A stretch of 64,000 nucleotides of DNA from Streptomyces violaceoruber (GTDB lineage: Bacteria; Actinomycetota; Actinomycetes; Streptomycetales; Streptomycetaceae): the NCBI RefSeq assembly GCF_033406955.1, contig NZ_CP137734.1, forward strand, positions 5,890,001-5,954,000. The letters run 5' to 3'. Position numbers and translations under genes: made by a program. The notes under the pieces are model-generated. The model had not been told where the DNA came from, did not search any database, and saw nothing but the letters and a program-made list of their open reading frames with translations. This document shows, piece by piece, positions 38,799 through 51,670 of this stretch (its first letter is position 1; each line of letters starts with the position of its first letter).

Positions 38799-39219
38799 GC
38801 TGTTCCTTCGCTGTCAGAGGGCCGTTTTTCCGGGTTTCTCCCCGGTTTCTCCCCGGGTTCCTCCCGGGTTTCTGCGCCGATTCCCCCGCCGGTTCCCCAT
38901 CGTGTACCTCGCGGGGGCAATCGTCATCTGTACCGTGGGGTAACCGGTCCTCCCGTGAGGATCGGGGGCACGTTCATTCGAGTCTCGTACCCACACATGG
39001 TTCCCAAATACGCAAACGGGGCAGATAGGTGTGGTGTACGTCACCTTCGGGCTGGACGGCATGGTTGGAGTTGCGGCGACACAGCCGGGATCGTCACCGT
39101 TTCGGCGGTCCCAGACGCCGGGTACTTGCGCGATCCGTCCCGCCCGTGTGGACTACGGCCAAGCCTCGCGCACGCGCGTGGCTGAAGACATCTACCGAAA
39201 CATGATCAGGAGGCAACCC
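38799..39219. other. 421-nt divergent region between aceE and the DUF3052 gene
   Basis: Holds the repeat-rich aceE leader (38820-38900) and less structured promoter DNA. A tract near 38990-39030 (CACATGGTTCCCAAATACGC) is less GC-rich and likely promoter-proximal. I see no tRNA, small gene with a good start, or strong dyad. Confidence 0.5.
38820..38900 (-). repeat. Degenerate 11-12-bp tandem repeats in the aceE leader
   Basis: On the plus strand, blocks such as CCGGGTTTCT, CCCCGGTTTCT, CCCCGGGTTCCT and CCCGGGTTTCT recur every 11-12 nt. On the aceE mRNA they read as purine-rich units like GGAGAAACCCGGG. They start about 25 nt before the GTG and give several GGAG cores, which could bind a protein or 30S subunits. 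Confidence 0.7.
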
Positions 39220-39657
39220 GTGAGCGCGACCGCGGACCACGCGGAGGAGCGGACGAACCCTGCCGCCAGGCTGGGTTTCCAGCCCGGGCAGGTGGTCCAG
39301 GAGATCGGCTACGACGACGACGTCGACCAGGAGCTCCGCGAGGCCATTGAGGGCGCCGTCGAGGGCGAGCTGGTGGACGAGGACTACGAGGACGTGGCCG
39401 ATGCCGTCGTGCTGTGGTTCCGTGACGACGACGGCGACCTGACGGATGCGCTGGTGGATGCCACCACGTACATCGAAGAGGGCGGGTCGATCCTCCTTCT
39501 CACGCCGAAGACCGGCCGTGACGGTTACGTCGAGGCCAGTGACATCTCGGAGGCCTCGACGACCGCCGGACTGACGGCGTCCAAGAGCGTCAGCGTCGGC
39601 AAGGACTGGAGCGGCAGCCGGCTGGCGACGCCCAAGGCCGCCAAGTCCAAGCGGTAG
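39220..39657 (+). CDS. DUF3052 protein
   Basis: A 145-residue very acidic cytoplasmic protein of the actinobacterial DUF3052 family. It has the conserved LGFQPGQVVQEIGYDDDVD and AVVLWFRDDDGDLTDALVDATTYIEEGGSILLLTPK segments and a Lys-rich C terminus. Start is GTG at 39220 with AGGAGG 6 nt upstream. Relatives are adjacent to aceE in Streptomyces as I recall, but no function is established; the divergent arrangement here fits. Confidence 0.87.
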   Translation: MSATADHAEERTNPAARLGFQPGQVVQEIGYDDDVDQELREAIEGAVEGELVDEDYEDVADAVVLWFRDDDGDLTDALVDATTYIEEGGSILLLTPKTGRDGYVEASDISEASTTAGLTASKSVSVGKDWSGSRLATPKAAKSKR

Positions 39658-39700
39658 CCCGACCGGGCTCCGTGACATTCCGGACTCCGGGCGGGTCGAC

Positions 39701-39718
39701 GGCCGACGGCTGTCGGCC
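39701..39718 (+). terminator. Hairpin after the DUF3052 gene
   Basis: GGCCGAC and GTCGGCC pair perfectly around a GGCT loop, 44 nt after the DUF3052 stop. Short stem, no T-run. Confidence 0.45.
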
Positions 39719-39771
39719 CGTCCGCGGGTCCGCGACCGTCCCTGCGTAGGGTGTTTCCAGCGAATCACCCA

Positions 39772-39797
39772 CGGAGATCTTCCCGCGGAGATCTTCC
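39772..39797 (+). repeat. 12-bp direct repeat CGGAGATCTTCC before the peroxiredoxin gene
   Basis: Two perfect copies start 14 nt apart (39772 and 39786), immediately before the ribosome-binding region of the peroxiredoxin gene. Each copy contains the palindrome AGATCT and the near-dyad GGA-GATC-TTCC. It may be a regulatory site. Confidence 0.7.
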
Positions 39798-39818
39798 TAC
39801 GGAAGGGACGAACGGGAC

Positions 39819-40277
39819 ATGGCGATCCAGGTCGGCGACAAGGCCCCCGACTTCGAACTCAAGGACAACCACGGAGCGACCGTCCGGCTGTCCGAGTTCC
39901 GCGGCCGGAAGAACGTCGTGCTGCTCTTCTACCCCTTCGCCTTCACCGGTGTGTGCACCGGCGAGCTGTGCGAGGTGCGCGACAACCTGCCGCAGTTCTC
40001 CGACCGCGACACCGAGGTGCTCGCCGTCTCCAACGACTCCATCCACACCCTGCGCGTCTTCGCCGAGCAGGAGGGCCTGGAGTACCCGCTGCTGTCCGAC
40101 TTCTGGCCGCACGGCAACGTCTCGCGCGCCTACGGCGTCTTCGACGAGGACAAGGGTTGCGCCGTCCGCGGCACCTTCGTGATCGACCAGGAGGGCGTCG
40201 TGCGCTGGACCGTGGTCAACGCTCTGCCGGACGCCCGTGACCTGGCCGAGTACGTGAAGGCGCTCGACGCCCTGTGA
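39819..40277 (+). CDS. One-Cys-type peroxiredoxin (AhpE-like)
   Basis: A 152-residue thiol peroxidase. The peroxidatic site is [19 protein letters not shown], with Cys46 in the P-x-x-x-T-x-x-C motif (Pro39, Thr43). Cys51 is nearby, and Cys at about residue 113 ([10 protein letters not shown]) is a possible resolving residue. AhpE-like enzymes reduce peroxynitrite and hydroperoxides. Start is ATG at 39819 behind a GGAAGGGA box. Confidence 0.9.
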
Positions 40278-40376
40278 CCGGCGCCCCCGCCGGCCGGCCC
40301 CGCGTGGCCACGCCGGGTGCCGACACCACGTGATTGGTCGGCTCCGGGGACTGCGGGGCGCGGGAACCCGTCACTA

Positions 40377-40394
40377 GGATCAACTCGTTGATCC
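40377..40394 (+). promoter_or_regulatory. Palindrome GGATCAAC-N2-GTTGATCC upstream of terD
   Basis: Perfect 8-bp arms around TC, 52 nt before the first terD GTG. A dimeric regulator site is likely, and its position near a promoter suggests control of the ter genes. No regulator is encoded next to it. Confidence 0.65.
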
Positions 40395-40445
40395 GATATC
40401 CACGCACTACGGGGCACCCCGCCCCTGGACACCAATGGAGGACTC

Positions 40446-41021
40446 GTGGGAGTCAGCCTCAGCAAGGGCGGCAACGTTTCGCTGACCAAGGAGGCCCCCG
40501 GCCTGACCGCGGTCATCGTCGGTCTGGGGTGGGACATCCGCACCACGACCGGCACCGACTTCGACCTCGACGCCAGCGCACTGCTGCTGAACAGCGGCGG
40601 CAAGGTCGCCAGCGACGCGCACTTCATCTTCTTCAACAACCTGAAGAGCCCGGACGGATCGGTCGAGCACACCGGCGACAACATCACCGGTGAGGGCGAG
40701 GGCGACGACGAGCAGATCAAGATCAACCTCGCCACGGTCCCCGCCGACATCGAGAAGATCGTCTTCCCGGTCTCGATCTACGACGCCGAGAACCGCCAGC
40801 AGTCCTTCGGCCAGGTGCGCAACGCGTTCATCCGCGTCGTCAACCAGGCCGGCGAGGCCGAGATCGCCCGCTACGACCTGAGCGAGGACGCCTCCACCGA
40901 GACCGCCATGGTCTTCGGCGAGCTGTACCGCCACGGCGCGGAGTGGAAGTTCCGCGCCATCGGCCAGGGCTACGCCTCGGGCCTGCGCGGCATCGCCCAG
41001 GACTTCGGCGTCAACGTCTGA
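40446..41021 (+). CDS. terD: TerD family stress protein
   Basis: A 191-residue TerD domain protein starting GTG, with the classical opening [20 protein letters not shown]. It has [11 protein letters not shown] and [10 protein letters not shown] acidic calcium-binding segments and the closing [25 protein letters not shown]. TerD proteins bind calcium and associate with membrane TerC-type proteins in tellurite, phage and stress resistance systems. It lies first in a cluster of five ter-type genes and shares about 70 percent of residues by eye with the next gene. A regulatory palindrome is upstream; an octamer repeat follows. Confidence 0.95.
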
Positions 41022-41052
41022 TCGACCGATCGACCGATCGACCGATCGGCCG
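41021..41052. repeat. Octamer tandem repeat ATCGACCG (three perfect copies plus one variant)
   Basis: Copies at 41021, 41029 and 41037 are perfect; 41045 reads ATCGGCCG. The array starts at the last base of the terD stop codon. Each unit contains palindromic CGATCG at its junction, so the array could also fold. Confidence 0.9.
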
Positions 41053-41103
41053 GACGGCGGGGGCGACGCCCCCTGTCGTCCGGTGAGGCCACGGTCTCGA
41101 CAC

Positions 41104-41138
41104 GTCCGGCGCCGCACGGTTTACGTGCGGCGCCGGAC
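41104..41138 (+). terminator. 14-bp-arm stem-loop between the two terD genes
   Basis: GTCCGGCGCCGCAC and GTGCGGCGCCGGAC pair perfectly around a 7-nt loop GGTTTAC. It lies between the terD genes, 43 nt before the second start. It is probably a terminator or attenuator that uncouples their expression. Confidence 0.8.
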
Positions 41139-41180
41139 GCGCAGGAAACAGGAACCATCACCCGGGGAGGGACCATCACC

Positions 41181-41756
41181 ATGGGCGTCACGCTTGCCAA
41201 GGGCGGCAACGTCTCCCTGTCCAAGGCCGCACCGAACCTCACGCAGGTACTGGTCGGGCTCGGCTGGGACGCGCGTTCCACCACCGGAGCACCCTTCGAC
41301 CTCGACGCCAGTGCACTCGTGTGCAGCAGCGGCCGGGTGCTCGGCGACGAGTGGTTCGTCTTCTACAACCAGCTCAAGAGCCCGGACGGCTCGATCGAGC
41401 ACACCGGCGACAACCTCACGGGCGAGGGCGACGGCGACGACGAGTCGCTGCTGGTCGACCTCTCCAAGGTGCCGGCCCACTGCGACAAGATCGTCTTCCC
41501 GGTCTCGATCCACATGGCCGACGAGCGCGGACAGACCTTCGGCCAGGTCAGCAACGCTTTCATCCGGGTCGTCAACCAGGCCGACGGCCAGGAGCTGGCC
41601 CGCTACGACCTCAGTGAGGACGCCTCCACGGAGACCGCGATGATCTTCGGCGAGCTCTACCGCTACCAGGGCGAGTGGAAGTTCCGTGCAGTGGGGCAGG
41701 GGTACGCGTCTGGGCTTCGCGGCATCGCTCTAGACTTCGGAGTCAACGTTTCGTAA
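41181..41756 (+). CDS. terD: TerD family stress protein, second copy
   Basis: A 191-residue paralogue of the preceding gene ([34 protein letters not shown], closing [15 protein letters not shown]). Aspartate-rich sites ([19 protein letters not shown]) suggest calcium binding. It is preceded by a strong hairpin and followed 50 nt later by the DUF475 gene. Tandem TerDs with near-identical length indicate a duplication. Confidence 0.95.
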
Positions 41757-41805
41757 AGCCGAGTACGGCGCGGGGGAGCCCCGTACACACACGATTGGGT
41801 AGCCA

Positions 41806-42948
41806 GTGCTTCTGAAAACCTTCGGCTGGTCGTTCGCGGTCACCGCGCTCGGCCTGGTCGCGGCGGTCTTCTACGGGGGGTGGACCGCCTTCGGCATCGT
41901 GGCGATCCTCTCCATCATGGAGATCTCGCTGTCCTTCGACAACGCGGTGGTCAACGCCGGGATCCTGAAGAAGATGAATGCCTTCTGGCAGAAGATCTTC
42001 CTCACCATCGGCATCCTCATCGCCGTGTTCGGCATGCGCCTGGTCTTCCCGGTCGTGATCGTGGCGATCAGCGCGTCGCTCGGACCGATCGAGGCGGTCG
42101 ACCTCGCGCTCACCGACAAGGACCGCTATCAGGAGCTGGTGACGGACGCCCATCCGTCGATCGCCGCCTTCGGTGGCATGTTCCTTCTGATGATCTTCCT
42201 CGACTTCATCTTCGAGGACCGGGACATCAAGTGGCTGGCCTGGCTGGAGCGTCCGCTGGCCAAGCTCGGCAAGGTCGACATGCTGTCGGTCTGCATCGCC
42301 CTGGTCGTGCTGCTCGTCTCCGCGATCACCTTCGGCGCCCACGCCCACCAGCACGGCGGCGCCCATGCCGACAAGGCGGAGACGGTCCTGCTCGCGGGCA
42401 TCGCGGGCCTGATCACCTACATGATCGTCGGTGGTCTCTCCGGCTACTTCGAGGACAAACTCGAAGAGGAGGAGGAACGGGAGCACGAGGAGGAAGAGGA
42501 AGCCGCGCGCACCGGCAAGCCCAAGTCGGCCGTCAGGCTGGCGGGCAAGGCGGCGTTCTTCATGTTCCTCTACCTGGAGGTCCTGGACGCCTCCTTCTCC
42601 TTCGACGGCGTCATCGGCGCCTTCGCCATCACCAACGACATCGTCCTGATGGCCCTCGGCCTGGGCATCGGCGCCATGTACGTCCGGTCGCTCACGGTCT
42701 ACCTGGTCCGCCAGGGCACCCTTGACGACTACGTCTACCTGGAGCACGGCGCCCACTACGCCATCGGCGCCCTCGCCGTGATCCTGCTGGTCACCATCCA
42801 GTACGAGATCCACGAGATCATCACCGGCCTCGTCGGTGTCGCCCTGATCGGCTGGTCCTTCTTCTCCTCGGTGCGCCGCAACCGCGCACTGGCGGCGGCC
42901 GGAGGAGACGGCGACCAGGAGAAGGCGGAGGTCTCCTCCGGGGTGTGA
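41806..42948 (+). CDS. DUF475/TerC-like integral membrane protein
   Basis: A 380-residue multi-pass protein starting GTG. It shows the TerC-type motif ILSIMEISLSFDNAVVNAGILKKM and a second, symmetric VLDASFSFDGVIGAFAIT. Both place acidic residues inside membrane helices, as in metal-ion-linked TerC proteins. A charged acidic loop (EEEEREHEEEEE, residues about 220-235) and a His-rich HAHQHGGAH loop may bind metal. It sits after two TerDs, its expected partners at the membrane. DUF475 is related to but distinct from TerC. Confidence 0.9.
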   Translation: MLLKTFGWSFAVTALGLVAAVFYGGWTAFGIVAILSIMEISLSFDNAVVNAGILKKMNAFWQKIFLTIGILIAVFGMRLVFPVVIVAISASLGPIEAVDLALTDKDRYQELVTDAHPSIAAFGGMFLLMIFLDFIFEDRDIKWLAWLERPLAKLGKVDMLSVCIALVVLLVSAITFGAHAHQHGGAHADKAETVLLAGIAGLITYMIVGGLSGYFEDKLEEEEEREHEEEEEAARTGKPKSAVRLAGKAAFFMFLYLEVLDASFSFDGVIGAFAITNDIVLMALGLGIGAMYVRSLTVYLVRQGTLDDYVYLEHGAHYAIGALAVILLVTIQYEIHEIITGLVGVALIGWSFFSSVRRNRALAAAGGDGDQEKAEVSSGV

Positions 42949-43033
42949 AACCCTTGATCCCCGGGCCGGGGCGCGCCCCCGGTGCGCCCGCACCCCTGGT
43001 GTGAACCCGGCCCGGACGAGGAACGCTCTGAGC

Positions 43034-43070
43034 GGGGCGGCCGACGAGGACGACTCCTCGGGGCCGCCCC
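43034..43070 (+). terminator. Two-part stem-loop after the DUF475 gene
   Basis: GGGGCGGCC (43034-43042) pairs with GGCCGCCCC (43062-43070), and inside it CGAGGA pairs with TCCTCG around CGAC. It lies between the DUF475 stop and the TerA-like gene start. Likely terminator. Confidence 0.8.
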
Positions 43071-43099
43071 GTCGGCGGTGACGCGAAGGTGGGGCGGGA

Positions 43100-43837
43100 A
43101 TGGGCTTCTTGGACGGGCTGTGGCGCGGCCGCGAGTCCGAGTTCGACTCGGGCAGTGCGGCGACCAACTCCATACAGCTGACCAAACGGCACAGTCAGGT
43201 ATCCCTGACCAAGCAGGGCGCGGCGACCGGCAATCTCCGTGTCAACCTCTCCTGGCGGATGCGGACCTCCGACATCTCGGGCGTCCAGCGGGAGAGCCTG
43301 CTGCGGCACCCCTTCAAGGCGCTCAAGCCCCCCGAGGTCGTCGGCCACAGCCAGAGCATGGTCAACGTCGACCTCGACCTCGGCTGCCTCTACGAACTCA
43401 AGGACGGCACCCGCGGGGTGGTCCAGCCGCTCGGCGGCTTCCTGGGCGACGTCAACGCCCCGCCGTACGTCAAGCTCAGCGGCGACGACCGCTTCGGCTC
43501 GGCCTCCGGCGAGACGCTCTACGTCAACCTCGACCACAAGGACGAGATCAAGCGCCTGCTGCTCTTCGCCTACATCTACGACCAGACCCCGGCCTTCGAC
43601 CGGACGCACGCCGTCGTCACGCTCTACCCGAGCAACGGGCCCCGCATCGAGATCGGCCTCGACGAGCGGCATCCGCAGGCCCGGTCCTGTGCCGTGGTGA
43701 TGATCGAGAACGTCAAGGACGAGATCCTCGTCCGCCGCGAGGTGAAGTTCGTCTACGGCTTCCAGGGCGAGCTGGACCGGCTGTACGGCTGGGGCCTGCA
43801 ATGGGGCCGGGGGCACAAGAGCAAGGCGGAGCGCTGA
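43100..43837 (+). CDS. TerA-like tellurium-resistance family protein
   Basis: A 245-residue protein in the TerD superfamily, of the TerA type. It opens MGFLDGLWRG, then IQLTKRHSQVSLTKQG, VNVDLDLGCLYELKDGTRGVVQPLGG and VVTLYPSNGPRIEIGLDE, and ends in a basic hydrophilic segment. The acidic calcium-binding segments are weaker than in TerD. It follows the DUF475 gene by 151 nt across a strong hairpin, and converges on a TerD with a Pro-rich tail. Confidence 0.8.
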   Translation: MGFLDGLWRGRESEFDSGSAATNSIQLTKRHSQVSLTKQGAATGNLRVNLSWRMRTSDISGVQRESLLRHPFKALKPPEVVGHSQSMVNVDLDLGCLYELKDGTRGVVQPLGGFLGDVNAPPYVKLSGDDRFGSASGETLYVNLDHKDEIKRLLLFAYIYDQTPAFDRTHAVVTLYPSNGPRIEIGLDERHPQARSCAVVMIENVKDEILVRREVKFVYGFQGELDRLYGWGLQWGRGHKSKAER

Positions 43838-43869
43838 GCCCCCGCCACCGGCCGCCGTCCGCGGGGGCT
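43837..43869. terminator. Hairpin between convergent TerA-like and TerD genes
   Basis: AGCCCCCGC (43837-43845) and GCGGGGGCT (43861-43869) are perfect complements with a 15-nt loop, spanning the gap between the two stop codons. Confidence 0.75.
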
Positions 43870-44863
43870 ACCGGCCGACGAACTGCGGGCCCTGCGGGGG
43901 CAGCCGGAAATCCGGATCGGGCGCCCCGGTGACCGGCTGCGGATAGCCGTAGCCGGACTGCGCTCCCGTGGCCCCGGCCGCCGCAGGCGCCTGCGGATAC
44001 CCGTACCCGGGCCGGCCGGCGTCCGGCTGGGGGTAGCCGTAGGCGGGCTGGGCCGTCGCCGGCTGCTGCGGATAGCCGTACGCGGGCTGCGCCGGTACGC
44101 CGGTGGGCTGCTCGGGCGGCAGGGGGCGCGAGGGCCCCGGAAGCGGCTGCACGGCCGTCGGGTGGTCGGGGCCGACCACCGGCGGGGCGGGGATGGACCG
44201 GGCAGGCGTCGGCTGGTCGGGCGTGGCCTGCGAGGGGGCGGACGAGGAGGCGGCGGAAGCGGCTGCGGGGGACGTCGACGCGGCGTCGGGCCGGGGGGCC
44301 GACATGGGGTCGTTCGCGCCCTCCGACTCGTCCACCGAGATGCCGAAGTCGGTCGCCAGGCCCCTGAGCCCGTTGGAGTAGCCCTCGCCCAGCGCCCGGA
44401 ACTTCCAGCCCTCCCCGCGCCGGTACAGCTCGCCGCAGATCAGCGCCGTCTCCTGGCCGGTCTCCGGTGTGACGTCGAAGTACGCCAGCGGTTCCGCGTC
44501 GGCCGCCGCGTCGTGCAGCAGGATGCGCAGCGACCGGACGCGGTCGAAGGTCACGCCGTCCGCCGACGCGACCAGCAGGATCCGGCCCACCGAGGGCTCG
44601 ACGCCGGAGAGATCCGTCTGGATCGTGTCGGTCAGGCCCTCGGCGACCCGCTTCTTGCCGAGCCGCCAGACCTGGCCGGAGGGATGCCGTGGCTGGTTGT
44701 AGAAGACGAAGTCCTCGTCGGAACGCACGCGGTCGTCCGGCCCCAGCAGCAGCGCGGAGGCGTCGACGTCGGGAACCCCCTGCCCGGGGGTCCAGCGCAG
44801 CACGGCGCGTACCGTGGTGGCTTGCAGCGGGACGTTCGACCCCTTCAGCATCGCGTGCGTCAT
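43868..44863 (-). CDS. TerD-domain protein with Pro/Gln/Tyr-rich repeat tail
   Basis: A 331-residue protein. Residues 1-180 are a TerD domain ([69 protein letters not shown]). From about 180 it turns into a Pro/Ala/Ser-rich linker, then about seven [AS]-YGYPQ-type repeats (AYGYPQ, GYGYPQ). Such Tyr/Pro/Gln-rich tails are disordered and often drive clustering at membranes or wall. It is on the opposite strand to the other ter genes and divergent from the aldolase operon. Confidence 0.87.
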
Positions 44864-44964
44864 GTCGTCATCCTGCCCTCTCGGTCCTGGTCACGACAAC
44901 GCGGGGGCGGGTACTCGGCTTGTGCCCGCCCGCCCCGGGTCGCCGTCGCCGACACGGCCGGGTT

Positions 44965-45044
44965 ACCTGGAATTCATGCCCGGTGGGAACCTCCGACATC
45001 ACTACCTACGTACTATTACCGGCCACCTTTCGACGATTCCAGGT
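44965..45044. promoter_or_regulatory. Long-range inverted repeat in the TerD/aldolase divergent region
   Basis: ACCTGGAAT (44965-44973) and ATTCCAGGT (45036-45044) are perfect 9-bp complements 62 nt apart. They flank the low-GC core of the 207-nt divergent region (CTACGTACTATTACC). They could be paired regulator half-sites or an RNA stem in the leader. Confidence 0.5.
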
Positions 45045-45070
45045 CGCCCAGACACCACGGGGGAGTTTAA

Positions 45071-46237
45071 ATGCGTCATTTCGGACAGATAGCCCCTGAT
45101 GTGCGGAAGCGTCTCTTTCATCAGGAGCCCTGCTCCTTCACGGCGGAGTCCCCGGCCAGGCTGCTGTCCGCGGCCCTGGGTGCCACGCTCTACAGTCCGG
45201 CCACCCGCCCCAGCCTCGCCGACGACATCCTGAAACAGAGCGCGCGCGGACTGGTGTCGATGGTGCTGTGCCTGGAGGACTCGATCGACGACGCCGACGT
45301 CCCCGTCGGCGAGGAGAACCTCGTACGGCAGCTCACGGACCTGGCGGAACGTTCCGGCGACGATGTCCCCCTGCTGTTCGTCCGGGTCCGTACCCCCGAG
45401 CAGATACCCGACCTCGTACGGCGCCTCGGCCCCGCCGTGCGGCTGCTGTCCGGGTTCGTACTGCCGAAGTTCACCGAGGAACGCGGCATGCCCTTCCTGG
45501 AGGCGCTCGCCGCCGCCGAGGCCACCAGCGGCCGCAGGCTCTTCGCCATGCCCGTGCTCGAGTCCCCGGACCTGCTGTACCGGGAGTCCCGGGTCCAGAC
45601 GCTGGAGGGCATCTCCCGGGCGGTCGACAAGTACCGCGACCGCGTGCTGGCCCTGCGGCTCGGCGTGACCGACTTCTGCTCCTCCTACGGGCTGCGCCGA
45701 GGCCCCGACATGACGGCCTACGACGTCCAGATCGTCGCCTCCGTGATCGCCGACGTGGTCAACATGCTCGCCCGCGCCGACGGCACCGGATTCACGGTGA
45801 CCGGACCGGTGTGGGAGTACTTCCGCGTCCAGGAGAGGATGTTCAAACCGCAACTGCGGCAGAGCCCCTTCCTGGAGGGGCAGGCCGTCGAACTGCGCCA
45901 GAAGCTCATCGAGCACTCCATGGACGGCCTGCTGCGCGAGATCTCCCTGGACCGGGCCAACGGCCTGCTGGGCAAGACCTGCATCCACCCCTCGCACGTG
46001 CTCCCCGTGCACGCACTGTCCGTGGTCAGCCACGAGGAGTTCAGCGACGCCCAGGACATCCTGCGGCCCGAACGCTGCGGCGGAGGCGTGATGAGGTCGG
46101 CCTACACGAACAAGATGAACGAGGTGAAGCCGCACCGCGCCTGGGCCGAGCGGACCCTGCTGCGCGGCGAGGTCTTCGGGGTGGCGAACGAGGACGTCGG
46201 CTTCGTGGAGCTGCTCGCCGCCGGACTCTCCGACTGA
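45071..46237 (+). CDS. HpcH/HpaI (citrate-lyase beta-like) aldolase of the Ter operon
   Basis: A 388-residue TIM-barrel C-C lyase related to CitE. Visible segments are GATLYSPATRPSLADDILKQ, SMVLCLEDSIDDADV, VRTPEQIPDL, MPVLESPDLLYRESR and KTCIHPSHVLPVHAL, carrying the acidic metal ligands and conserved Arg/Glu. First gene of a three-gene unit with the fused PRTase and HAD hydrolase. In published comparative genomics, Ter systems include such a lyase in a nucleoside-like metabolite biosynthetic module. The product here is unknown. Confidence 0.88.
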   Translation: MRHFGQIAPDVRKRLFHQEPCSFTAESPARLLSAALGATLYSPATRPSLADDILKQSARGLVSMVLCLEDSIDDADVPVGEENLVRQLTDLAERSGDDVPLLFVRVRTPEQIPDLVRRLGPAVRLLSGFVLPKFTEERGMPFLEALAAAEATSGRRLFAMPVLESPDLLYRESRVQTLEGISRAVDKYRDRVLALRLGVTDFCSSYGLRRGPDMTAYDVQIVASVIADVVNMLARADGTGFTVTGPVWEYFRVQERMFKPQLRQSPFLEGQAVELRQKLIEHSMDGLLREISLDRANGLLGKTCIHPSHVLPVHALSVVSHEEFSDAQDILRPERCGGGVMRSAYTNKMNEVKPHRAWAERTLLRGEVFGVANEDVGFVELLAAGLSD

Positions 46238-46315
46238 ACGCCGGGCGACCGGACGCAAGCGATCCACAACCGACGCCGGGCCCACGCCGCGGCGGACAAC
46301 GGGAGGCACGAGTAG

Positions 46316-48835
46316 ATGACCGAGCGGGCGCACGCCGAGGGGCACGCCGACAAGGACGCCGGAGAGCACGCCGACGGGCACGCCGGAGTCTGGTCCGGCA
46401 GCTGGGTCGCCGAGCGGCTCGGCGTCGGACTCACCGGCGACGAGGCGCTGACCGGCCTGCTGGGGCTCGCCCTGCGACGCAACCCCAAGCGGGCGCACCT
46501 GCTCGTCTCCAACGTGCTCGGCAAGCACGTCCCGCAGTCGCCCGCCGTCGTCTACGGCCACGGCGTCGCCCTCGGCCGACGCGTCCGCGACCTGCTCGGC
46601 GCCGAGGAGACCGCACGCGCGGTCGTCCTCGGCTACGCGGAGACCGCCACCGGACTCGGCCACTCCGTCGCCGACGGCCTGGGCCCCGCGCCCTATCTGC
46701 ACTCCACCCGCCGTCCGGTCGCCCACGTCCCCCGGGCGGGCGGCTTCGAGGAGTCCCACTCGCACGCGACCTCCCACCTCCTGCTGCCCGAGGACCCGGC
46801 GCTGCTCGCCGGAGACGGGCCGCTGGTCCTCGTCGACGACGAGTTCTCCACCGGCAACACGGTGCTCAACACCGTCCGCGCCCTGCACGAGCGCTACCCC
46901 CGCAAGCGATACGTCGTGGTCGCCCTGGTCGACATGCGCTCGCCCGCGGACGCCGGCCGGCTGGACGACTTCGCCCGGGAGATCGGCGCCCGCGTGGACC
47001 TGGTGACCACCGCCTCCGGCACGGTCCGGCTGCCGCCCGGCGTACTGGAGAAGGGGCAGGAGCTGGTCGCCCGGCACGAGGCGACGGCCACGGAGCCGAC
47101 CGGCCCCGCTCCGGCCGCGCCACCGGCCGGATCCGTCGAGCGCGTCCGGCTGCGCTGGCCGCACGACGTGCCCGACGGCGGACGGCACGGATTCACCGCC
47201 GCCCACCGGGCCCGGCTGGAGGCCGCCCTGCCCGCCATGGCGGCACGGATCGCCGAGGCGCTCCCCGCCGGCGCCCGACGCGTGCTCGTCCTCGGCTTCG
47301 AGGAGCTCATGTACGCCCCCCTCCGCCTGGCCCACGCGCTGGAGCAGACCGTCGGCGCCGACGTCGACGTGCGCTACTCCACCACCACCCGCTCTCCCGT
47401 CCTCGCCGTCGACGACCCCGGCTACGCCATCCGCACCCGTCTGGTCTTCCCCGCGCACGACGACCCGGCCGACGGCCCTGGCGAGCGCTACGCCTACAAC
47501 GTCGCGGGCGGCGGCTTCGACGCCGTCGTCGCCGTCGTCGACTCGGCCGCCGACACCCCCGCGCTGCACGCCCCGGACGGACTGCCGGCCCGGCTCGCCG
47601 CCCACGTCCCGCACGTCCTGCTCGCGGTCGTGCCGTCGTACGTCCCGCGCCCCCCGCACGCCACCGAAAGGCCCTCCATGCTGCCCGAGCCCCTGCGCGG
47701 CCCCGACTTCTCCTCGTACGCGCCCGACGAGGTCGGCTGGCTGCTCCAGGACCTCTCGGACGTGACGCTGGAGGCACCGACCGAGGAACGCGAGGAGGCC
47801 ATCCAGAGCGGCGGCGCGCACTACGCCGAGTCGCTGCCCGTGGAGTACCAGCCCAGCGAGCAGTACCAGGACCTGTTCCACGCGGCGCTCGAGACGTCCG
47901 CGGCCCGGCTGGCGCGCGCCGTCGGCGCCGTCACCGAGATCGTCCTCGCGGAACGGTCGCCCCGCCCCGTCCTGGTCTCCCTCGCCCGCGCGGGCACCCC
48001 GGTCGGCGTCCTGATGCGCCGCTGGGCGCAGTTCCGCCATGGTCTCGACCTCCCCCACTACGCCGTGTCGATCGTCCGGGGCCGCGGCATCGACGCCAAC
48101 GCGCTGCGCTGGCTGGCCGACCACCACGACCCCGCCGACGTCGTCTTCGTCGACGGCTGGACCGGCAAGGGCGCCATCACCCGCGAACTCGCCGCCGCCC
48201 TGCGCGCATTCGAGGCCACCGACGGCATCACCGGCTTCGACCCGGAGATCGCCGTACTGGCCGATCCCGGCTCCTGCGTACGCACCTACGGCACCCGTGA
48301 CGACTTTCTCATCCCCTCCGCCTGCCTCAACTCCACCGTCTCCGGCCTGATATCCCGCACCGTGCTCCGCGCCGACCTGGTCGGCCCGCACGACTTCCAC
48401 GGCGCGAAGTTCTACCGCGAACTCGCCGCCGTCGACCTGTCACCGGACTTCCTCGACGCCGTCTCCGCCCGCTTCCCCGACGTCACGGACACGGTCGACG
48501 CCCAGGCGAAGGACCTCCTCTCCGCCGACCGCACCCCGACCTGGGAGGGCTGGGCCGCCGTCGAGCGCATCAGCGAGGAGTACGGCATCCACGACGTGAA
48601 CCTCGTCAAGCCCGGCGTCGGCGAGACCACGCGGGTGATGCTGCGCCGCGTCCCGTGGAAGGTGCTGGCCCGCACCGGCGCCGGCGCCGACCTGGACCAC
48701 GTCCGCCTGCTGGCCGAACAGCGGGGCGTGCCCGTGGAGGAGGTCGCCGACCTCCCGTACACCTGTGTCGGGCTGATCCACCCCCAGTACACGCGGGGCG
48801 CCACCGGCGCCGACGGCAAGGCGGTGACGCTCTGA
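46316..48835 (+). CDS. Fused double phosphoribosyltransferase (PRTase_2-TRSP plus StiP-like)
   Basis: An 839-residue protein made of two enzymes that are usually separate. Residues about 30-250 are a PRTase with PRPP-binding loop VLVDDEFSTGNTV (Asp174-Asp175 region). Residues about 275-445 form the TRSP-type C-terminal domain. A Pro-rich junction leads, from about residue 455 (MLPEPLRGPDFSSY), into a StiP/PRTase_1-like half with a second PRPP loop FVDGWTGKGA (residues 611-620). Both fit the Ter-linked biosynthetic module thought to make a nucleoside-type metabolite. The start ATG at 46316 lies 78 nt after the aldolase gene; the stop overlaps the HAD gene start (TGATG). Confidence 0.87.
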   Translation: MTERAHAEGHADKDAGEHADGHAGVWSGSWVAERLGVGLTGDEALTGLLGLALRRNPKRAHLLVSNVLGKHVPQSPAVVYGHGVALGRRVRDLLGAEETARAVVLGYAETATGLGHSVADGLGPAPYLHSTRRPVAHVPRAGGFEESHSHATSHLLLPEDPALLAGDGPLVLVDDEFSTGNTVLNTVRALHERYPRKRYVVVALVDMRSPADAGRLDDFAREIGARVDLVTTASGTVRLPPGVLEKGQELVARHEATATEPTGPAPAAPPAGSVERVRLRWPHDVPDGGRHGFTAAHRARLEAALPAMAARIAEALPAGARRVLVLGFEELMYAPLRLAHALEQTVGADVDVRYSTTTRSPVLAVDDPGYAIRTRLVFPAHDDPADGPGERYAYNVAGGGFDAVVAVVDSAADTPALHAPDGLPARLAAHVPHVLLAVVPSYVPRPPHATERPSMLPEPLRGPDFSSYAPDEVGWLLQDLSDVTLEAPTEEREEAIQSGGAHYAESLPVEYQPSEQYQDLFHAALETSAARLARAVGAVTEIVLAERSPRPVLVSLARAGTPVGVLMRRWAQFRHGLDLPHYAVSIVRGRGIDANALRWLADHHDPADVVFVDGWTGKGAITRELAAALRAFEATDGITGFDPEIAVLADPGSCVRTYGTRDDFLIPSACLNSTVSGLISRTVLRADLVGPHDFHGAKFYRELAAVDLSPDFLDAVSARFPDVTDTVDAQAKDLLSADRTPTWEGWAAVERISEEYGIHDVNLVKPGVGETTRVMLRRVPWKVLARTGAGADLDHVRLLAEQRGVPVEEVADLPYTCVGLIHPQYTRGATGADGKAVTL

Positions 48836-49647
48836 TGCCCGTACTCGTCGCCAGCGACCTCGACCGCACGCTCATCTACTCCGCGGCCGCCCTCGGACTG
48901 ACCATGCCCGACCTGCGGGCACCCCGCCTGCTGTGCGTGGAGGTCTACGAGAGCAAGCCCCTCTCCTACCTGACCGAGACGGCCGCCCAACTGCTGACCG
49001 ACCTCGGCGACTCGGCCCTCTTCGTGCCGACCACCACCCGGACCCGCAAGCAGTACCAGCGGATCAACCTCCCGGGCCCTGCGCCGAAGTACGCGATCTG
49101 CGCCAACGGCGGCCACCTGCTGGTGGACGGCGTCTCCGACCCCGGCTGGCACGCCCGGGTGACCGCGCGGCTGGCCGACGAATGCGCCTCGCTCGCCGAG
49201 GTCCGCGACCACCTGACGAACACCGCCGACCCGCTGTGGGTGCGCAAGCACCGGGTCGCCGAGGACCTCTTCGCCTACCTGGTCGTCGAACGCGACCTGC
49301 TGCCCCAGGACTGGGTGAAGGAACTCGCCGTGTGGGCCGAGAACCGCGGCTGGACCGTGTCCCTCCAGGGCCGCAAGATCTACGCCGTGCCCAAGCCGCT
49401 CACCAAGAGCGCCGCCATGCACGAGGTCGCCCGCCGCACCGGCGCCGAACTCACCCTCGCCGCCGGAGACTCGCTCCTCGACGCCGACCTGCTCCTCGCC
49501 GCCGACCGCGGCTGGCGCCCGGGCCACGGCGAACTGGCCGACTCCGGATGGACGGCTCCGACGATCAGCGCCTTGCCCGAGCGCGGCGTCCTGGCCGGTG
49601 AGCGGATCCTCCGGGAGTTCCTGCGCGCGGTGCGCCCGGCTCGCTGA
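48835..49647 (+). CDS. HAD-family hydrolase of the Ter operon
   Basis: A 270-residue HAD phosphohydrolase. Motif I is SDLDRTLIYS (D-x-D-x-T), motif II TTTRTRKQY (Thr), motif III Lys in KPLTKSAAM and motif IV GDSLLDADLLL (G-D-x-x-x-D). The cap arrangement suggests type C2. The ATG at 48835 overlaps the PRTase stop, so it is co-translated. A HAD is a standard part of the Ter biosynthetic module and may dephosphorylate its nucleotide-type product. The 3' end overlaps the converging DedA gene by 83 bp. Confidence 0.9.
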   Translation: MPVLVASDLDRTLIYSAAALGLTMPDLRAPRLLCVEVYESKPLSYLTETAAQLLTDLGDSALFVPTTTRTRKQYQRINLPGPAPKYAICANGGHLLVDGVSDPGWHARVTARLADECASLAEVRDHLTNTADPLWVRKHRVAEDLFAYLVVERDLLPQDWVKELAVWAENRGWTVSLQGRKIYAVPKPLTKSAAMHEVARRTGAELTLAAGDSLLDADLLLAADRGWRPGHGELADSGWTAPTISALPERGVLAGERILREFLRAVRPAR

Positions 49648-50395
49648 ACCCGCCGTCCCCGTCCCCGGCACCGCCCCCGGTGCCGGGGTGGCCGTCGTCG
49701 TCGGCCGGCGGCCGTATGTCCTGCCGCCCGTCGTCGCCGCGGCCCCGCCGACGGTGACCGGCCCCCGGCCGCAGCAGCCGCATGACGACGAAGACCACCA
49801 CCGCCAGGGCGGCCGCCGCGAGGATCACCTTCGAATAGGTGGAGGCGATGCCCGAGACCTCCGACCAGTTGTCCCCCAGCGCGTAGCCCGCGAGCACGAA
49901 CACGGTGTTCCAGATCGCGCTGCCCAGCGTCGTCAGGGCGAGGAAGACGGGCAGCCGCATCCGCTCCACACCCGCCGGCACGGAGATCAGACTGCGGAAG
50001 ATGGGGATCATCCGGCCGAAGAACACCGCCTTGGTCCCGTGCCTGAGGAACCACGCCTCCGTCTTCTCTATGTCGGACACCTTCACCAGCGGCAGCTTCC
50101 CCGCTATCGCCACCGTGCGGTCCCGGCCGAGCAGGGCACCGATCCCGTACAGGGCGAGCGCGCCGATCACCGAACCCGCCGTCGTCCACAGCAGGACGGC
50201 GATCAGGCTCATCCGGCCGGAGCTCGCCGCGAACCCGGCCAGCGGCAGGATCACCTCGCTCGGCAGGGGAGGAAAGAGATTCTCCAGAGCGATGGCGAGA
50301 CCGGCGCCGGGGGCGCCGAGGGCGTCCATGAGGTCGTTGATCCACTGCGGTGCCGCGCCGCTGTCCACGGCCGGCTGCGCTGCGATGGCTGTCAT
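49565..50395 (-). CDS. DedA-family membrane protein with disordered C-terminal tail
   Basis: A 276-residue protein. The DedA fold is clear: LENLFPPLPSEVILPLAGF, a central FFGRMIPIFRSLISVPAGVERM (the conserved Arg/Pro loop) and several membrane helices. DedA proteins are linked to lipid (C55-P/PE) flipping and membrane potential. From about residue 205 it becomes an Arg/Gly/Asp-rich hydrophilic tail of 70 residues overlapping the HAD gene by 83 bp on the opposite strand. I used ATG 50395 (MTAIAAQPA). It is divergent from a two-component system. Confidence 0.88.
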   Translation of the reverse strand: MTAIAAQPAVDSGAAPQWINDLMDALGAPGAGLAIALENLFPPLPSEVILPLAGFAASSGRMSLIAVLLWTTAGSVIGALALYGIGALLGRDRTVAIAGKLPLVKVSDIEKTEAWFLRHGTKAVFFGRMIPIFRSLISVPAGVERMRLPVFLALTTLGSAIWNTVFVLAGYALGDNWSEVSGIASTYSKVILAAAALAVVVFVVMRLLRPGAGHRRRGRGDDGRQDIRPPADDDGHPGTGGGAGDGDGGFSEPGAPRAGTPGGSAHRPGRRARARR

Positions 50396-50452
50396 GACGA
50401 CCACGCTAGAAAATCGCGGCTGAAGGGACCCTGAGGAAGACCGCATGATCGA

Positions 50453-50491
50453 TTGCGGTGTACCGCAGGCGGGAATTGCGGTTTTCCGCAG
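50453..50491. promoter_or_regulatory. Paired operators TTGCGG-N4-CCGCAG upstream of the two-component genes
   Basis: Two copies (50453-50468 and 50476-50491) share TTGCGG/CCGCAG arms around 4 nt; their centres are 23 nt apart, about two helical turns. They lie between the divergent DedA and histidine-kinase starts. LuxR-type response regulators typically bind such dyads; autoregulation is likely. Confidence 0.75.
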
Positions 50492-50527
50492 TGTGCCCGC
50501 CCACCGCGCCCGACTAGCCTCACGATC

Positions 50528-51670
50528 ATGCGAGTCATGGCGCGACGTCTAGTGCGGTGCGGGGCGGGCCTCATCCTGGGGACCGCCGCGGCCGCCGTCG
50601 AGCTGCTCTTCGCCCTGTTGGCCGGCGTGGCCCTGCTGCCGGTGGCCGCCTGGCCGAAGGGGCGCCGTGCCGTACTGCGCCCGGTCCTCGCGGGCGCGCG
50701 GATCCTGGCGGAGCTGGAGCGGGGCCGGCTGCGGATGTGGCTCGACCTCCGCGTCACACCCGCGTACGAGGACGTGCGGGCGCTGCGGTACGTCGCCTGC
50801 CACTGGGCCCTGGGCGTCCTGGGCGGGGTCGTGATGCTGACGGCCGCCATCGGTCTGGCGTACGGCACCTTCGGGGTGTACGGCTGGCTCCTGCTGGACG
50901 GCATACGCAACCCCGGTTCGCTGGTCCTGGGCAGTCTGGGCGGCTTCTTCCTCGTGTTCCTCACCGTGCAGGGAATATTCGGTGTGGTGGGACTGGAGGG
51001 GCAGCTGGCCCGGCACTTCCTCGGCCCGCGCCACCAGGAGGAGCTGGAGCGGCGGATCGCCGAGCTGTCCGCCAGCCGCGCCGCGGTCGTCGACGCGGTG
51101 AACGACGAACGGCGCCGCATCGAGCGCGACCTGCACGACGGAGTGCAGCAGCGCCTCGTCGCCCTCGGCATGCTGCTCGGCCGGGCCCGCCGCAGCCAGG
51201 ACGCCGACCGCCGCGACCGCCTGCTGGGCCAGGCCCACGACGAGAGCCGCCGGGCCCTGGACGAGCTGCGCGAGGTGGCCTGGCGGATCTACCCGACCAC
51301 GCTGGACGAGGCGGGGCTGCGCGCGGCCCTGGAAACGGTCGCCGAGCGGGCGTCGGTACCGGTGGGAGTGGAGTACGCGCTGGCCGAGGAGCCCGAGCAG
51401 GCCGTGGCGACCGTCGCGTACTTCGTCGTCTGCGAGGCGGTCACCAACGCGGTCAAGCACGCGGCGCCGACCCGTATAAGCGTCGCGGTCAGAGCGGAGG
51501 AGAAACGGATGTACGTGAGCGTGCGGGACGACGGCTGCGGCGGGGCCAACGCCGCGGGCAGCGGACTGTTCGGGCTCGCCCGGCGCGTCGCCGCCCTCGA
51601 CGGCAGCCTCAGCGTGGACAGCCCCCCGGGAGGGCCGACCCTCGTGGCCGCGGAGCTGCCATGCGGGTGA
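50528..51670 (+). CDS. Sensor histidine kinase (NarL-type partner)
   Basis: A 380-residue membrane kinase. The N terminus has about four hydrophobic helices in a sensor-domain arrangement (residues 8-40 and 95-160). The dimerisation/phospho-acceptor helix is ERRRIERDLHDGVQQRLVALG, with His in RDLHDG. The C terminus is a HATPase_c domain (CEAVTNAVKHAAPTRIS, RDDGCGG, GLFGLARRVAALDG). Start ATG at 50528; an ATG at 50537 is an alternative. It overlaps the response-regulator gene by 10 nt. Signal unknown; membrane or envelope sensing is plausible given the integral sensor and the divergent DedA gene. Confidence 0.92.
   Translation: MRVMARRLVRCGAGLILGTAAAAVELLFALLAGVALLPVAAWPKGRRAVLRPVLAGARILAELERGRLRMWLDLRVTPAYEDVRALRYVACHWALGVLGGVVMLTAAIGLAYGTFGVYGWLLLDGIRNPGSLVLGSLGGFFLVFLTVQGIFGVVGLEGQLARHFLGPRHQEELERRIAELSASRAAVVDAVNDERRRIERDLHDGVQQRLVALGMLLGRARRSQDADRRDRLLGQAHDESRRALDELREVAWRIYPTTLDEAGLRAALETVAERASVPVGVEYALAEEPEQAVATVAYFVVCEAVTNAVKHAAPTRISVAVRAEEKRMYVSVRDDGCGGANAAGSGLFGLARRVAALDGSLSVDSPPGGPTLVAAELPCG

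What the first reader, a model, noticed from the sequence alone, without database searches (positions are those of the whole stretch)
45071..49647. Ter-linked biosynthetic operon with unknown product
The aldolase, double PRTase and HAD genes are consecutive with overlaps or short gaps and lie next to five TerD-family genes and a TerC-like protein. Comparative genomics links such sets to a nucleoside-like metabolite used in stress or phage defence, but the product is not known. This small three-enzyme version is a convenient candidate for finding it.
Basis: partly seen in the sequence, partly recalled or inferred. Interest (0 to 1): 0.7.

Follow-up and report, generated by a model that had tools for sequence, protein, structure and literature searches.

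The report
Streptomyces core operon for unknown metabolite
Three neighbouring genes that nearly all Streptomyces carry beside their Ter stress genes encode enzymes that probably attach ribose to an unknown small molecule, and one close relative of these enzymes has already been crystallised under a different name, which gives chemists a concrete way in.

Summary
Lyase (45071-46237), fused double phosphoribosyltransferase (46316-48835) and HAD phosphatase (48835-49647) lie in a row beside TerD genes and a TerC-like gene. I find four TerD-family genes, not five. This is the known Ter-linked biosynthetic module; its product is still unknown. The module's StiP domain is in 147 of 150 Streptomyces genomes, and the three genes stay together in 80 of 80 related loci, so in Streptomyces it looks like core physiology rather than a patchy defence island.

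Four things are added. (1) Databases call the second PRTase domain 'cysteine protease StiP'; predicted fold and conserved residues say PRTase, and no cysteine is shared by all relatives. (2) The C-terminal 'PELOTA' domain is nearest to L7Ae, a K-turn RNA binder. (3) The HAD family already has crystal structures (6D3V, 6CJ0), deposited as 'trehalose phosphatase'; nearly the same enzyme sits in a Pseudomonas ter module. I found no paper making that link in the held library. (4) PRTase, StiP and HAD form the core; lyase and ATP-grasp are optional layers.

Best model: PRPP-dependent ribosylation of an unknown acceptor, then dephosphorylation. Phage defence in Streptomyces is unsupported.

The parts
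45071..46237 (+). CitE/HpcH-like C-C bond lyase (PF15617), 388 aa
   Evidence: Pfam E 1.6e-123; profile of 3 relatives matches CitE-like lyases in the PDB, 3qll_A E 4.1e-10; E164 and D201 invariant in 3 of 3 rows; their role as metal ligands is recalled from CitE/malyl-CoA lyase work
46316..48835 (+). four-domain fusion: PRTase_2, TRSP, StiP (second PRTase), PELOTA_1 (L7Ae-like), 839 aa
   Evidence: Pfam; AF2 halves fold as APRT-type PRTase and as PyrR/HGPRT-type PRTase plus L7Ae-like domain. GGGAGG before ATG 46316; the first ~24 residues are not conserved
48835..49647 (+). HAD phosphatase, C2-cap type, 270 aa
   Evidence: DLDRT motif and HAD motifs II-IV conserved in 5 of 5; direct match to PDB 6cj0/6d3v 'Trehalose phosphatase' E 6e-8, profile E 1.6e-57
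44864..45070 (.). 207-bp divergent promoter region between terD3 and the operon, with conserved blocks at about 44864-44906 and 44960-45023
   Evidence: alignment of 81 intergenic sequences; no sigma-70-type match in the region
43868..44863 (-). TerD-domain protein, divergent from the operon, present in 80 of 80 loci
   Evidence: PF02342 E 4e-44; synteny
43100..43837 (+). TerA-like protein (C-terminal TerA domain)
   Evidence: 38% to plasmid TerA in alignment A7; PF02342 E 0.048
41806..42948 (+). TerC-family membrane protein (DUF475)
   Evidence: PF04332 E 4.8e-143, PF03741 E 9.4e-21
41181..41756 (+). TerD protein
   Evidence: PF02342 E 1.2e-82
40446..41021 (+). TerD protein
   Evidence: PF02342 E 5.8e-88

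Best explanation
The operon is the chromosomal Streptomyces form of the Ter-linked biosynthetic module and makes a ribosylated ('nucleoside-like') small molecule. Proposed order: the CitE-like lyase forms or trims a carbon-carbon bond to supply the acceptor (inferred); the APRT-like PRTase_2 domain transfers ribose-5-phosphate from PRPP to that acceptor (fold and PRPP motif shown, reaction inferred); the fused StiP domain is a second PRTase-fold unit that either does a second transfer or senses PRPP or product (fold shown, role inferred); the HAD phosphatase removes the 5'-phosphate to release the free product (motifs and family shown, substrate inferred). TerD/TerA proteins next door are the likely receptors or carriers and the TerC/DUF475 protein a metal transporter (from published Ter models, not tested). 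In Streptomyces this is near-universal, so core stress physiology is more likely than an accessory defence locus.
For: PRTase_2 half: Foldseek E 2.7e-6 to an E. coli protein (2dy0) ranked with APRTs, VIA Z 13.2, rmsd 3.2, 171 aligned to 5zc7 APRT; PRPP motif with D174, D175, T179, G180 invariant in 45 rows. StiP: VIA Z 8.5, rmsd 3.4, 140 aligned to PyrR 4p81 and Z 8.0, 148 aligned to HGPRT 3o7m; VDGWTGKG-type loop, with D148, T151, G152, K153, G154 invariant in 7 diverse rows and in 80 of 80 Streptomyces. HAD: 5 of 5 with catalytic motifs, solved relative. Co-inheritance: lyase, prt and had in 80 of 80 loci, in 4 further actinobacterial loci and in Tsukamurella. StiP in 147 of 150 Streptomyces. 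PRTase plus phosphatase as a ribosylation pair has a precedent in butirosin biosynthesis, BtrL/BtrP (recalled, no call).
Against: No acceptor, product or activity is shown for this operon. StiP's PRPP loop has Gly where most type I PRTases have a second acid and is about two residues shorter (seen; the PRTase consensus is recalled), so StiP may not be catalytic. StiP's Foldseek hits are weak (best E 5e-3, none at E <= 0.001) and its Z of about 8 lies at the tool's own warning level. The only reported activity of a close HAD relative is on trehalose-6-phosphate, not on a nucleotide. The lyase is absent from two otherwise intact-looking modules, so the pathway order is uncertain.
Confidence: 0.5

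Rival explanations
1. The fusion acts on RNA: the L7Ae-like C-terminal domain docks StiP on a K-turn RNA, and the PRTase domain adds ribose phosphate to, or exchanges a base in, that RNA (or regulates it as PyrR does); the HAD then removes the phosphate.
For: PELOTA_1 profile matches L7Ae by sequence (1sds_A E 2.8e-4; all 33 sequences with E under 0.03 are named L7Ae, eL8, S12 or Snu13; none of the 47 listed up to E 10 is named Pelota or eRF1). Predicted fold nearest YbxF bound to a riboswitch (3v7e Z 9.5, rmsd 2.7, 69 aligned). The G-x-N-E-x-T-K motif of L7Ae aligns with G-[IV]-[GA]-E-x-T-R, E, T and R invariant in 9 of 9 and 80 of 80; that these L7Ae residues contact K-turn RNA is recalled. 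PyrR, among the closest PRTase folds, is itself an RNA-binding PRTase (its PDB name: pyr mRNA-binding attenuation protein). PRPP-dependent tRNA ribosylation exists (Rit1, recalled).
Against: The Asn of the L7Ae motif is Gly, Ala or Ser here. No RNA family was found in 39000-51000. The lyase and ATP-grasp fit small-molecule chemistry better. The L7Ae fold also occurs in proteins that do not bind K-turns (recalled).
Confidence: 0.2
2. The module makes a sugar or trehalose-like, phosphate-derived solute: the HAD is a genuine trehalose-6-phosphate-type phosphatase.
For: The HAD encoded inside the Pseudomonas aeruginosa plasmid ter module (between PRTase and StiP) is 93% identical (233 of 251 by my count of the printed alignment) to PDB 6d3v/6cj0 'Trehalose phosphatase' (E 5e-161). 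PMC6838324 (passages read) assays an extrachromosomal P. aeruginosa TPP.
Against: The cap region is poorly conserved between that enzyme and the Streptomyces HAD, so the specificity cannot be carried over. No trehalose-phosphate synthase is annotated in the module stretches read. Two PRTases would be unexplained. That P. aeruginosa lacks OtsA is recalled.
Confidence: 0.12
3. PF11202 is a cysteine protease (StiP), as Pfam and RefSeq name it, that processes Ter proteins.
For: Database name. C189 of the half (C654 of the protein) is in 6 of 7 diverse rows and 80 of 80 Streptomyces; H230 (H695) is invariant.
Against: No Cys is invariant: the three virus-borne proteins have I, R and V at C189, and C205 is missing in proteobacterial rows. 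The model matches PRTases, and the listed best fold matches name no protease. One paper in the held library contains the phrase 'cysteine protease StiP' (listing only).
Confidence: 0.04
4. An anti-phage or fertility-inhibition system whose enzymes make an alarm nucleotide.
For: Published model for Ter systems in jumbo phages and plasmids (PMC7824862 section 22). Modules occur on plasmids and rarely in phages.
Against: Near-universal and single copy in Streptomyces, without the patchy spread usual for defence loci; no PADLOC model.
Confidence: 0.1

Closest known systems
Ter-linked biosynthetic module of enterobacterial plasmids (IncHI2 type, e.g. NZ_CP074367.1)
   Same: PRTase_2-TRSP, HAD, StiP-PELOTA and HpcH-type lyase adjacent to TerD/TerC genes
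   Different: The plasmid set has an ATP-grasp (PF15632 E 1.7e-37), TerB, TerF-like, TerW, TerY-type and phosphatase/kinase genes and separate PRTase and StiP genes. Streptomyces fuses the two and has no ATP-grasp beside them
'Trehalose phosphatase' PDB 6D3V, 6D3W, 6CJ0 (P. aeruginosa, origin recalled)
   Same: Same HAD family as the operon's third gene; a 93% identical protein lies in a P. aeruginosa ter module
   Different: Studied as trehalose metabolism; 0 papers in the held library have both 'tellurite resistance' and 'trehalose-6-phosphate phosphatase'; substrate of the Streptomyces enzyme unknown
Ter system of Acinetobacter jumbo phage ME3
   Same: PRTase_2, HAD, StiP, TerD, TerC; described in PMC7824862
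   Different: No lyase, no fusion, StiP lacks the near-conserved Cys
PyrR / HGPRT and APRT type I phosphoribosyltransferases
   Same: Predicted folds of the StiP and PRTase_2 domains
   Different: StiP has DG instead of a DD/ED acid pair and an L7Ae-like extension; identity is low (10-22% in the listed StiP rows)
L7Ae / YbxF K-turn binding proteins
   Same: Fold and E-x-T-R/K motif of PELOTA_1
   Different: Fused to an enzyme; the motif Asn is replaced

Membership tests
Ter-linked biosynthetic module (PF15609/PF12500/PF11202/PF15608/PF15617/HAD) | PRTase_2-TRSP and StiP-PELOTA together with a HAD gene | tested here: met
Ter-linked biosynthetic module (PF15609/PF12500/PF11202/PF15608/PF15617/HAD) | C-C_Bond_Lyase in the operon | tested here: met
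   in 80 of 80 Streptomyces loci
Ter-linked biosynthetic module (PF15609/PF12500/PF11202/PF15608/PF15617/HAD) | neighbouring TerD and TerC family genes | tested here: met
Ter-linked biosynthetic module (PF15609/PF12500/PF11202/PF15608/PF15617/HAD) | ATP-grasp (PF15632) in the module (an accessory part, in 4 of 12 loci outside Streptomyces, not a defining one) | tested here: not met
   none among the genes scanned beside the operon; strong PF15632 hits lie megabases away and only in 35 of 101 Streptomyces; 4 of 12
[quoted passage not shown]
   prediction in the literature only
Type I phosphoribosyltransferase (PRTase_2 domain) | type I PRTase fold with DD...TG PRPP motif | tested here: met
Type I phosphoribosyltransferase (StiP domain) | type I PRTase fold | tested here: met
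   VIA Z 8.0-8.5 over 140-148 residues; Foldseek alone weak
Type I phosphoribosyltransferase (StiP domain) | acid pair plus TG in the PRPP loop | tested here: inconclusive
   VDGWTGKG: one acid and a shorter loop
Cysteine protease (StiP label) | a catalytic Cys shared by the family | tested here: not met
   no invariant Cys in 7 or 24 rows; the 3 viral rows lack C189
HAD phosphatase, C2 cap | DxDxT, motif II Thr, Lys, GDxxxD | tested here: met
   weak Pfam hits of relatives to S6PP and Hydrolase_3
K-turn binding L7Ae family | L7Ae fold and N-E-x-T-K contact motif | tested here: inconclusive
   fold and E/T/R kept, Asn not kept
Known anti-phage defence system | match to a PADLOC model | tested here: not met
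   best E 0.09 in 6 proteins

The most novel reading that the evidence does not exclude
The fused PRTase is a PRPP-dependent RNA-targeting enzyme: an L7Ae-like domain places a PRTase on K-turn RNA (ribosomal RNA or K-turn riboswitches), and the HAD finishes the modification by removing the phosphate. The 'nucleoside-like metabolite' would then be a ribosylated RNA nucleotide rather than a free molecule, and Ter stress tolerance would act through translation or riboswitch RNAs.
Probability: 0.12. Interest if true: 0.9.

Novelty: new member of a known kind. Interest (0 to 1): 0.5.

Why it matters
The product of the Ter biosynthetic module has been an open question since it was predicted in 2012. 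The module is spread over thousands of plasmid records (2567 of 72,556 match the fusion) and, as shown here, is near-universal in Streptomyces, where it sits in a tractable, harmless chromosome. The finding that its phosphatase family already has crystal structures and an assay under another name gives a direct handle on the substrate, and the PRTase and K-turn readings give two concrete hypotheses that a bench group can separate.

Tried and rejected
Cysteine-protease reading of PF11202: rejected on conserved residues and fold, with the caveat that one Cys is near-invariant outside viruses. ATP-grasp elsewhere as a missing partner: PF15632 rings in 100 of 101 genomes and in 13 of 14 control genomes, so most hits are probably general ATP-grasp enzymes; strong hits (E about 1e-30 or better) occur in 35 of 101, unlike StiP; not taken as a partner. 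Structured RNA in the region: none in Rfam at gathering scores. Sigma-70-type promoter and terminators at 44700-50000: none. The conserved promoter core CTACGTACTATTACC occurs once in the window. TRSP domain: it was not folded or searched alone; the rows of the N-half search cover residues 20-253. Rhizobium, phage ME3 and L127 lack the lyase, and L127 also a detectable HAD, which weakens any claim that the lyase is essential. The 2012 Ter paper and the 2018 trehalose-phosphatase paper could not be read; they are known only through citations in other papers. Paper searches on literature and novelty.

Selection and rows left out: the 12 non-Streptomyces loci of the presence table were chosen because they match PRTase or StiP, so presence of those two is by construction. 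The second, solo StiP-PELOTA copy of one Streptomyces (L121), the sub-cut-off hit L116 and the unannotated Nocardia stretch L141 were left out of that table. Only the best 80 of 565 confirmed loci were kept by the tool. In the dN/dS run terD1 may mix paralogues.

Full report
What is there. The window lies in an 8.63-Mb chromosome; the 80 closest related loci are all Streptomyces. Between 45071 and 49647 three genes follow each other on the plus strand: a lyase of Pfam family C-C_Bond_Lyase, an 839-residue protein with PRTase_2, TRSP, StiP (PF11202) and PELOTA_1 domains, and a HAD protein. The PRTase stop and the HAD start overlap by one base; the lyase-PRTase gap is 78 bases. Upstream lie two TerD genes, a TerC-family DUF475 gene, a TerA-like gene and, divergent, a third TerD gene. 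The whole genome holds 20 TerD-domain matches, 19 over the cut-off.

It is conserved and selected. In 80 related Streptomyces loci the unit terD3(-) lyase prt had is present in 80 of 80. The wider order, from terD1 or further upstream, is kept in 71 (69 of them from aceE); the other 9 match only from terD3 or the TerA-like gene on, and 9 loci have less than 3.8 kb of DNA before the PRTase gene. Median dN/dS against the window is 0.175 (lyase), 0.247 (PRTase_2), 0.157 (StiP) and 0.156 (HAD), beside 0.139 for aceE. The divergent intergenic region has blocks conserved in 81 sequences, whereas the lyase-PRTase gap is not conserved. PF11202 is in 147 of 150 Streptomyces genomes; the three without a match are drafts in 550 to 1420 contigs. 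In a phylum sample it is in 18 of 296 genomes: 12 Streptomyces (window genome included), 4 of one other family and 2 weak hits, one of them below the cut-off. It is thus a core trait of the genus and rare elsewhere in the phylum. In some Streptomyces the open frame holding StiP is only 382-481 residues long (for example G036, G048, G058, G140), so the two halves are apart there, and in Tsukamurella they are two genes. Fused and split forms suggest that the two halves work together (inference).

The second PRTase. Pfam and RefSeq call PF11202 a cysteine protease. In 7 diverse proteins (Streptomyces twice, another actinobacterium, Tsukamurella, E. coli plasmid, Rhizobium, phage ME3) no Cys is invariant, while D148, T151, G152, K153 and G154 of a VDGWTGKG loop are. 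The best Cys candidate, C189 of the half, is kept in 6 of 7 rows and in 80 of 80 Streptomyces, but is I, R and V in the three virus-borne proteins. An AlphaFold model (pLDDT 78.8, pTM 0.83, 24 rows) aligns over residues of about 51-248 with PyrR and HGPRT (Z 8.0-8.5, rmsd 3.4-3.6, 140-148 aligned for 4p81 and 3o7m). Foldseek alone gave no hit at E <= 0.001, so this rests on the second aligner, the motif and the many PyrR rows among the hits. The loop has one acid instead of two, so catalysis is not assured. The PRTase_2 half (pLDDT 77.9, pTM 0.82) is a clear APRT-type PRTase (Foldseek E 2.7e-6; Z 13.2).

The RNA-binding domain. A profile of 9 PELOTA_1 sequences finds L7Ae in the PDB (E 2.8e-4), and none of the 47 listed sequences up to E 10 is named Pelota or eRF1. 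The model's closest fold is YbxF on the SAM-I riboswitch (Z 9.5, rmsd 2.7, 69 aligned). The E, T and R of G-x-x-E-x-T-R are invariant in 9 of 9; the Asn of L7Ae is not kept. RNA binding is therefore plausible but not shown.

The phosphatase has a solved relative. The HAD genes of the E. coli plasmid, Tsukamurella, Rhizobium and phage modules, three of which are annotated only as hypothetical, align with the Streptomyces HAD and keep the catalytic motifs. Their profile matches 6d3v and 6cj0, 'Trehalose phosphatase', at E 1.6e-57; the Streptomyces HAD alone matches them at 6e-8. The HAD gene inside the P. aeruginosa plasmid ter module, between PRTase and StiP, is 93% identical to them (233 of 251 by my count). 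PMC6838324 (passages only) assays an extrachromosomal P. aeruginosa trehalose-phosphate phosphatase and cites Cross 2018. That 6D3V/6CJ0 come from that work is recalled; the near identity supports it. No paper in the held library has both 'tellurite resistance' and 'trehalose-6-phosphate phosphatase'; a wider search gave no paper that I recognised from titles and abstracts as making the link. The substrate-facing cap is poorly conserved, so the Streptomyces enzyme need not act on trehalose phosphate.

Nested composition. Twelve distinct loci outside Streptomyces, picked by PRTase or StiP matches (L123-L127, L131-L136, L140; L134, L137 and L139 are one phage, L136 and L138 one contig), were read: PRTase_2 and StiP in 12 of 12 (by selection), HAD in 11 of 12, TerD in 10 of 12, lyase in 9 of 12, ATP-grasp in 4 of 12. 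Rhizobium and phage ME3 have PRTase, HAD and StiP without the lyase. Among plasmids the fusion query finds 2567 of 72,556 records and the lyase 2516; many are near copies of one another. The core is therefore PRTase, StiP and HAD; lyase and ATP-grasp are added layers (inference).

Mechanism. The best reading is PRPP-dependent ribosylation of an acceptor followed by dephosphorylation (0.5). The RNA-directed reading (0.2) and the sugar-phosphate reading (0.12) remain open. Phage defence in Streptomyces is weak given the near-universal, single-copy distribution and the lack of PADLOC matches. In Klebsiella terZ-F alone was sufficient for tellurite resistance (PMC8115787, section 6 read), so the biosynthetic part probably has some other task. 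The published Streptomyces gene SCO2368, a TerD gene linked to calcium homeostasis (seen only as a cited title), is probably in this locus (recalled gene order, not tested).

Novelty. The module and the nucleoside idea are published; this is a member of that kind, with an actinobacterial fusion and no ATP-grasp. The PRTase reading of PF11202 is, as recalled, also that of the 2012 authors; the fold test against the protease label, the L7Ae match and the link to a solved phosphatase appear new within the searches made.

Noticed in passing
L121:6817-8136 (-): One Streptomyces (G023) has a second, stand-alone StiP-PELOTA gene (59% identical) beside an alcohol dehydrogenase, a P450-like frame and transposase genes, with no PRTase_2, HAD or lyase match within 15 kb.
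   Followed up: partly
window 49565-50446 (-): A DedA/VTT membrane protein converges on the HAD gene and overlaps its 3' end by about 80 bases; it resembles undecaprenyl phosphate transporter UptA (E 3.6e-36) but is below NCBIfam's cut-off.
   Followed up: no
window 44864-44906 and 44960-45023: Two strongly conserved non-coding blocks in the divergent terD3/lyase promoter region, including GGGAAC and CTACGTACTATTACC, without a sigma-70 match; possibly an ECF-type promoter.
   Followed up: partly
L135, L136/L138: Two virus-labelled IMG/VR contigs carry Ter modules with lyase, PRTase, StiP, HAD and ATP-grasp matches; L136 also has TerA, TerB, TerC and TerD. They may be prophage or plasmid pieces.
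   Followed up: partly
window 45002-48400 (-): A 1132-aa open frame opposite the operon looks like a high-GC shadow frame, not a gene.
   Followed up: no
L127 (G271:C104): A distant actinobacterial Ter locus with divergent StiP (28% identical) and PRTase_2 but no detectable HAD or lyase in 18 kb.
   Followed up: partly
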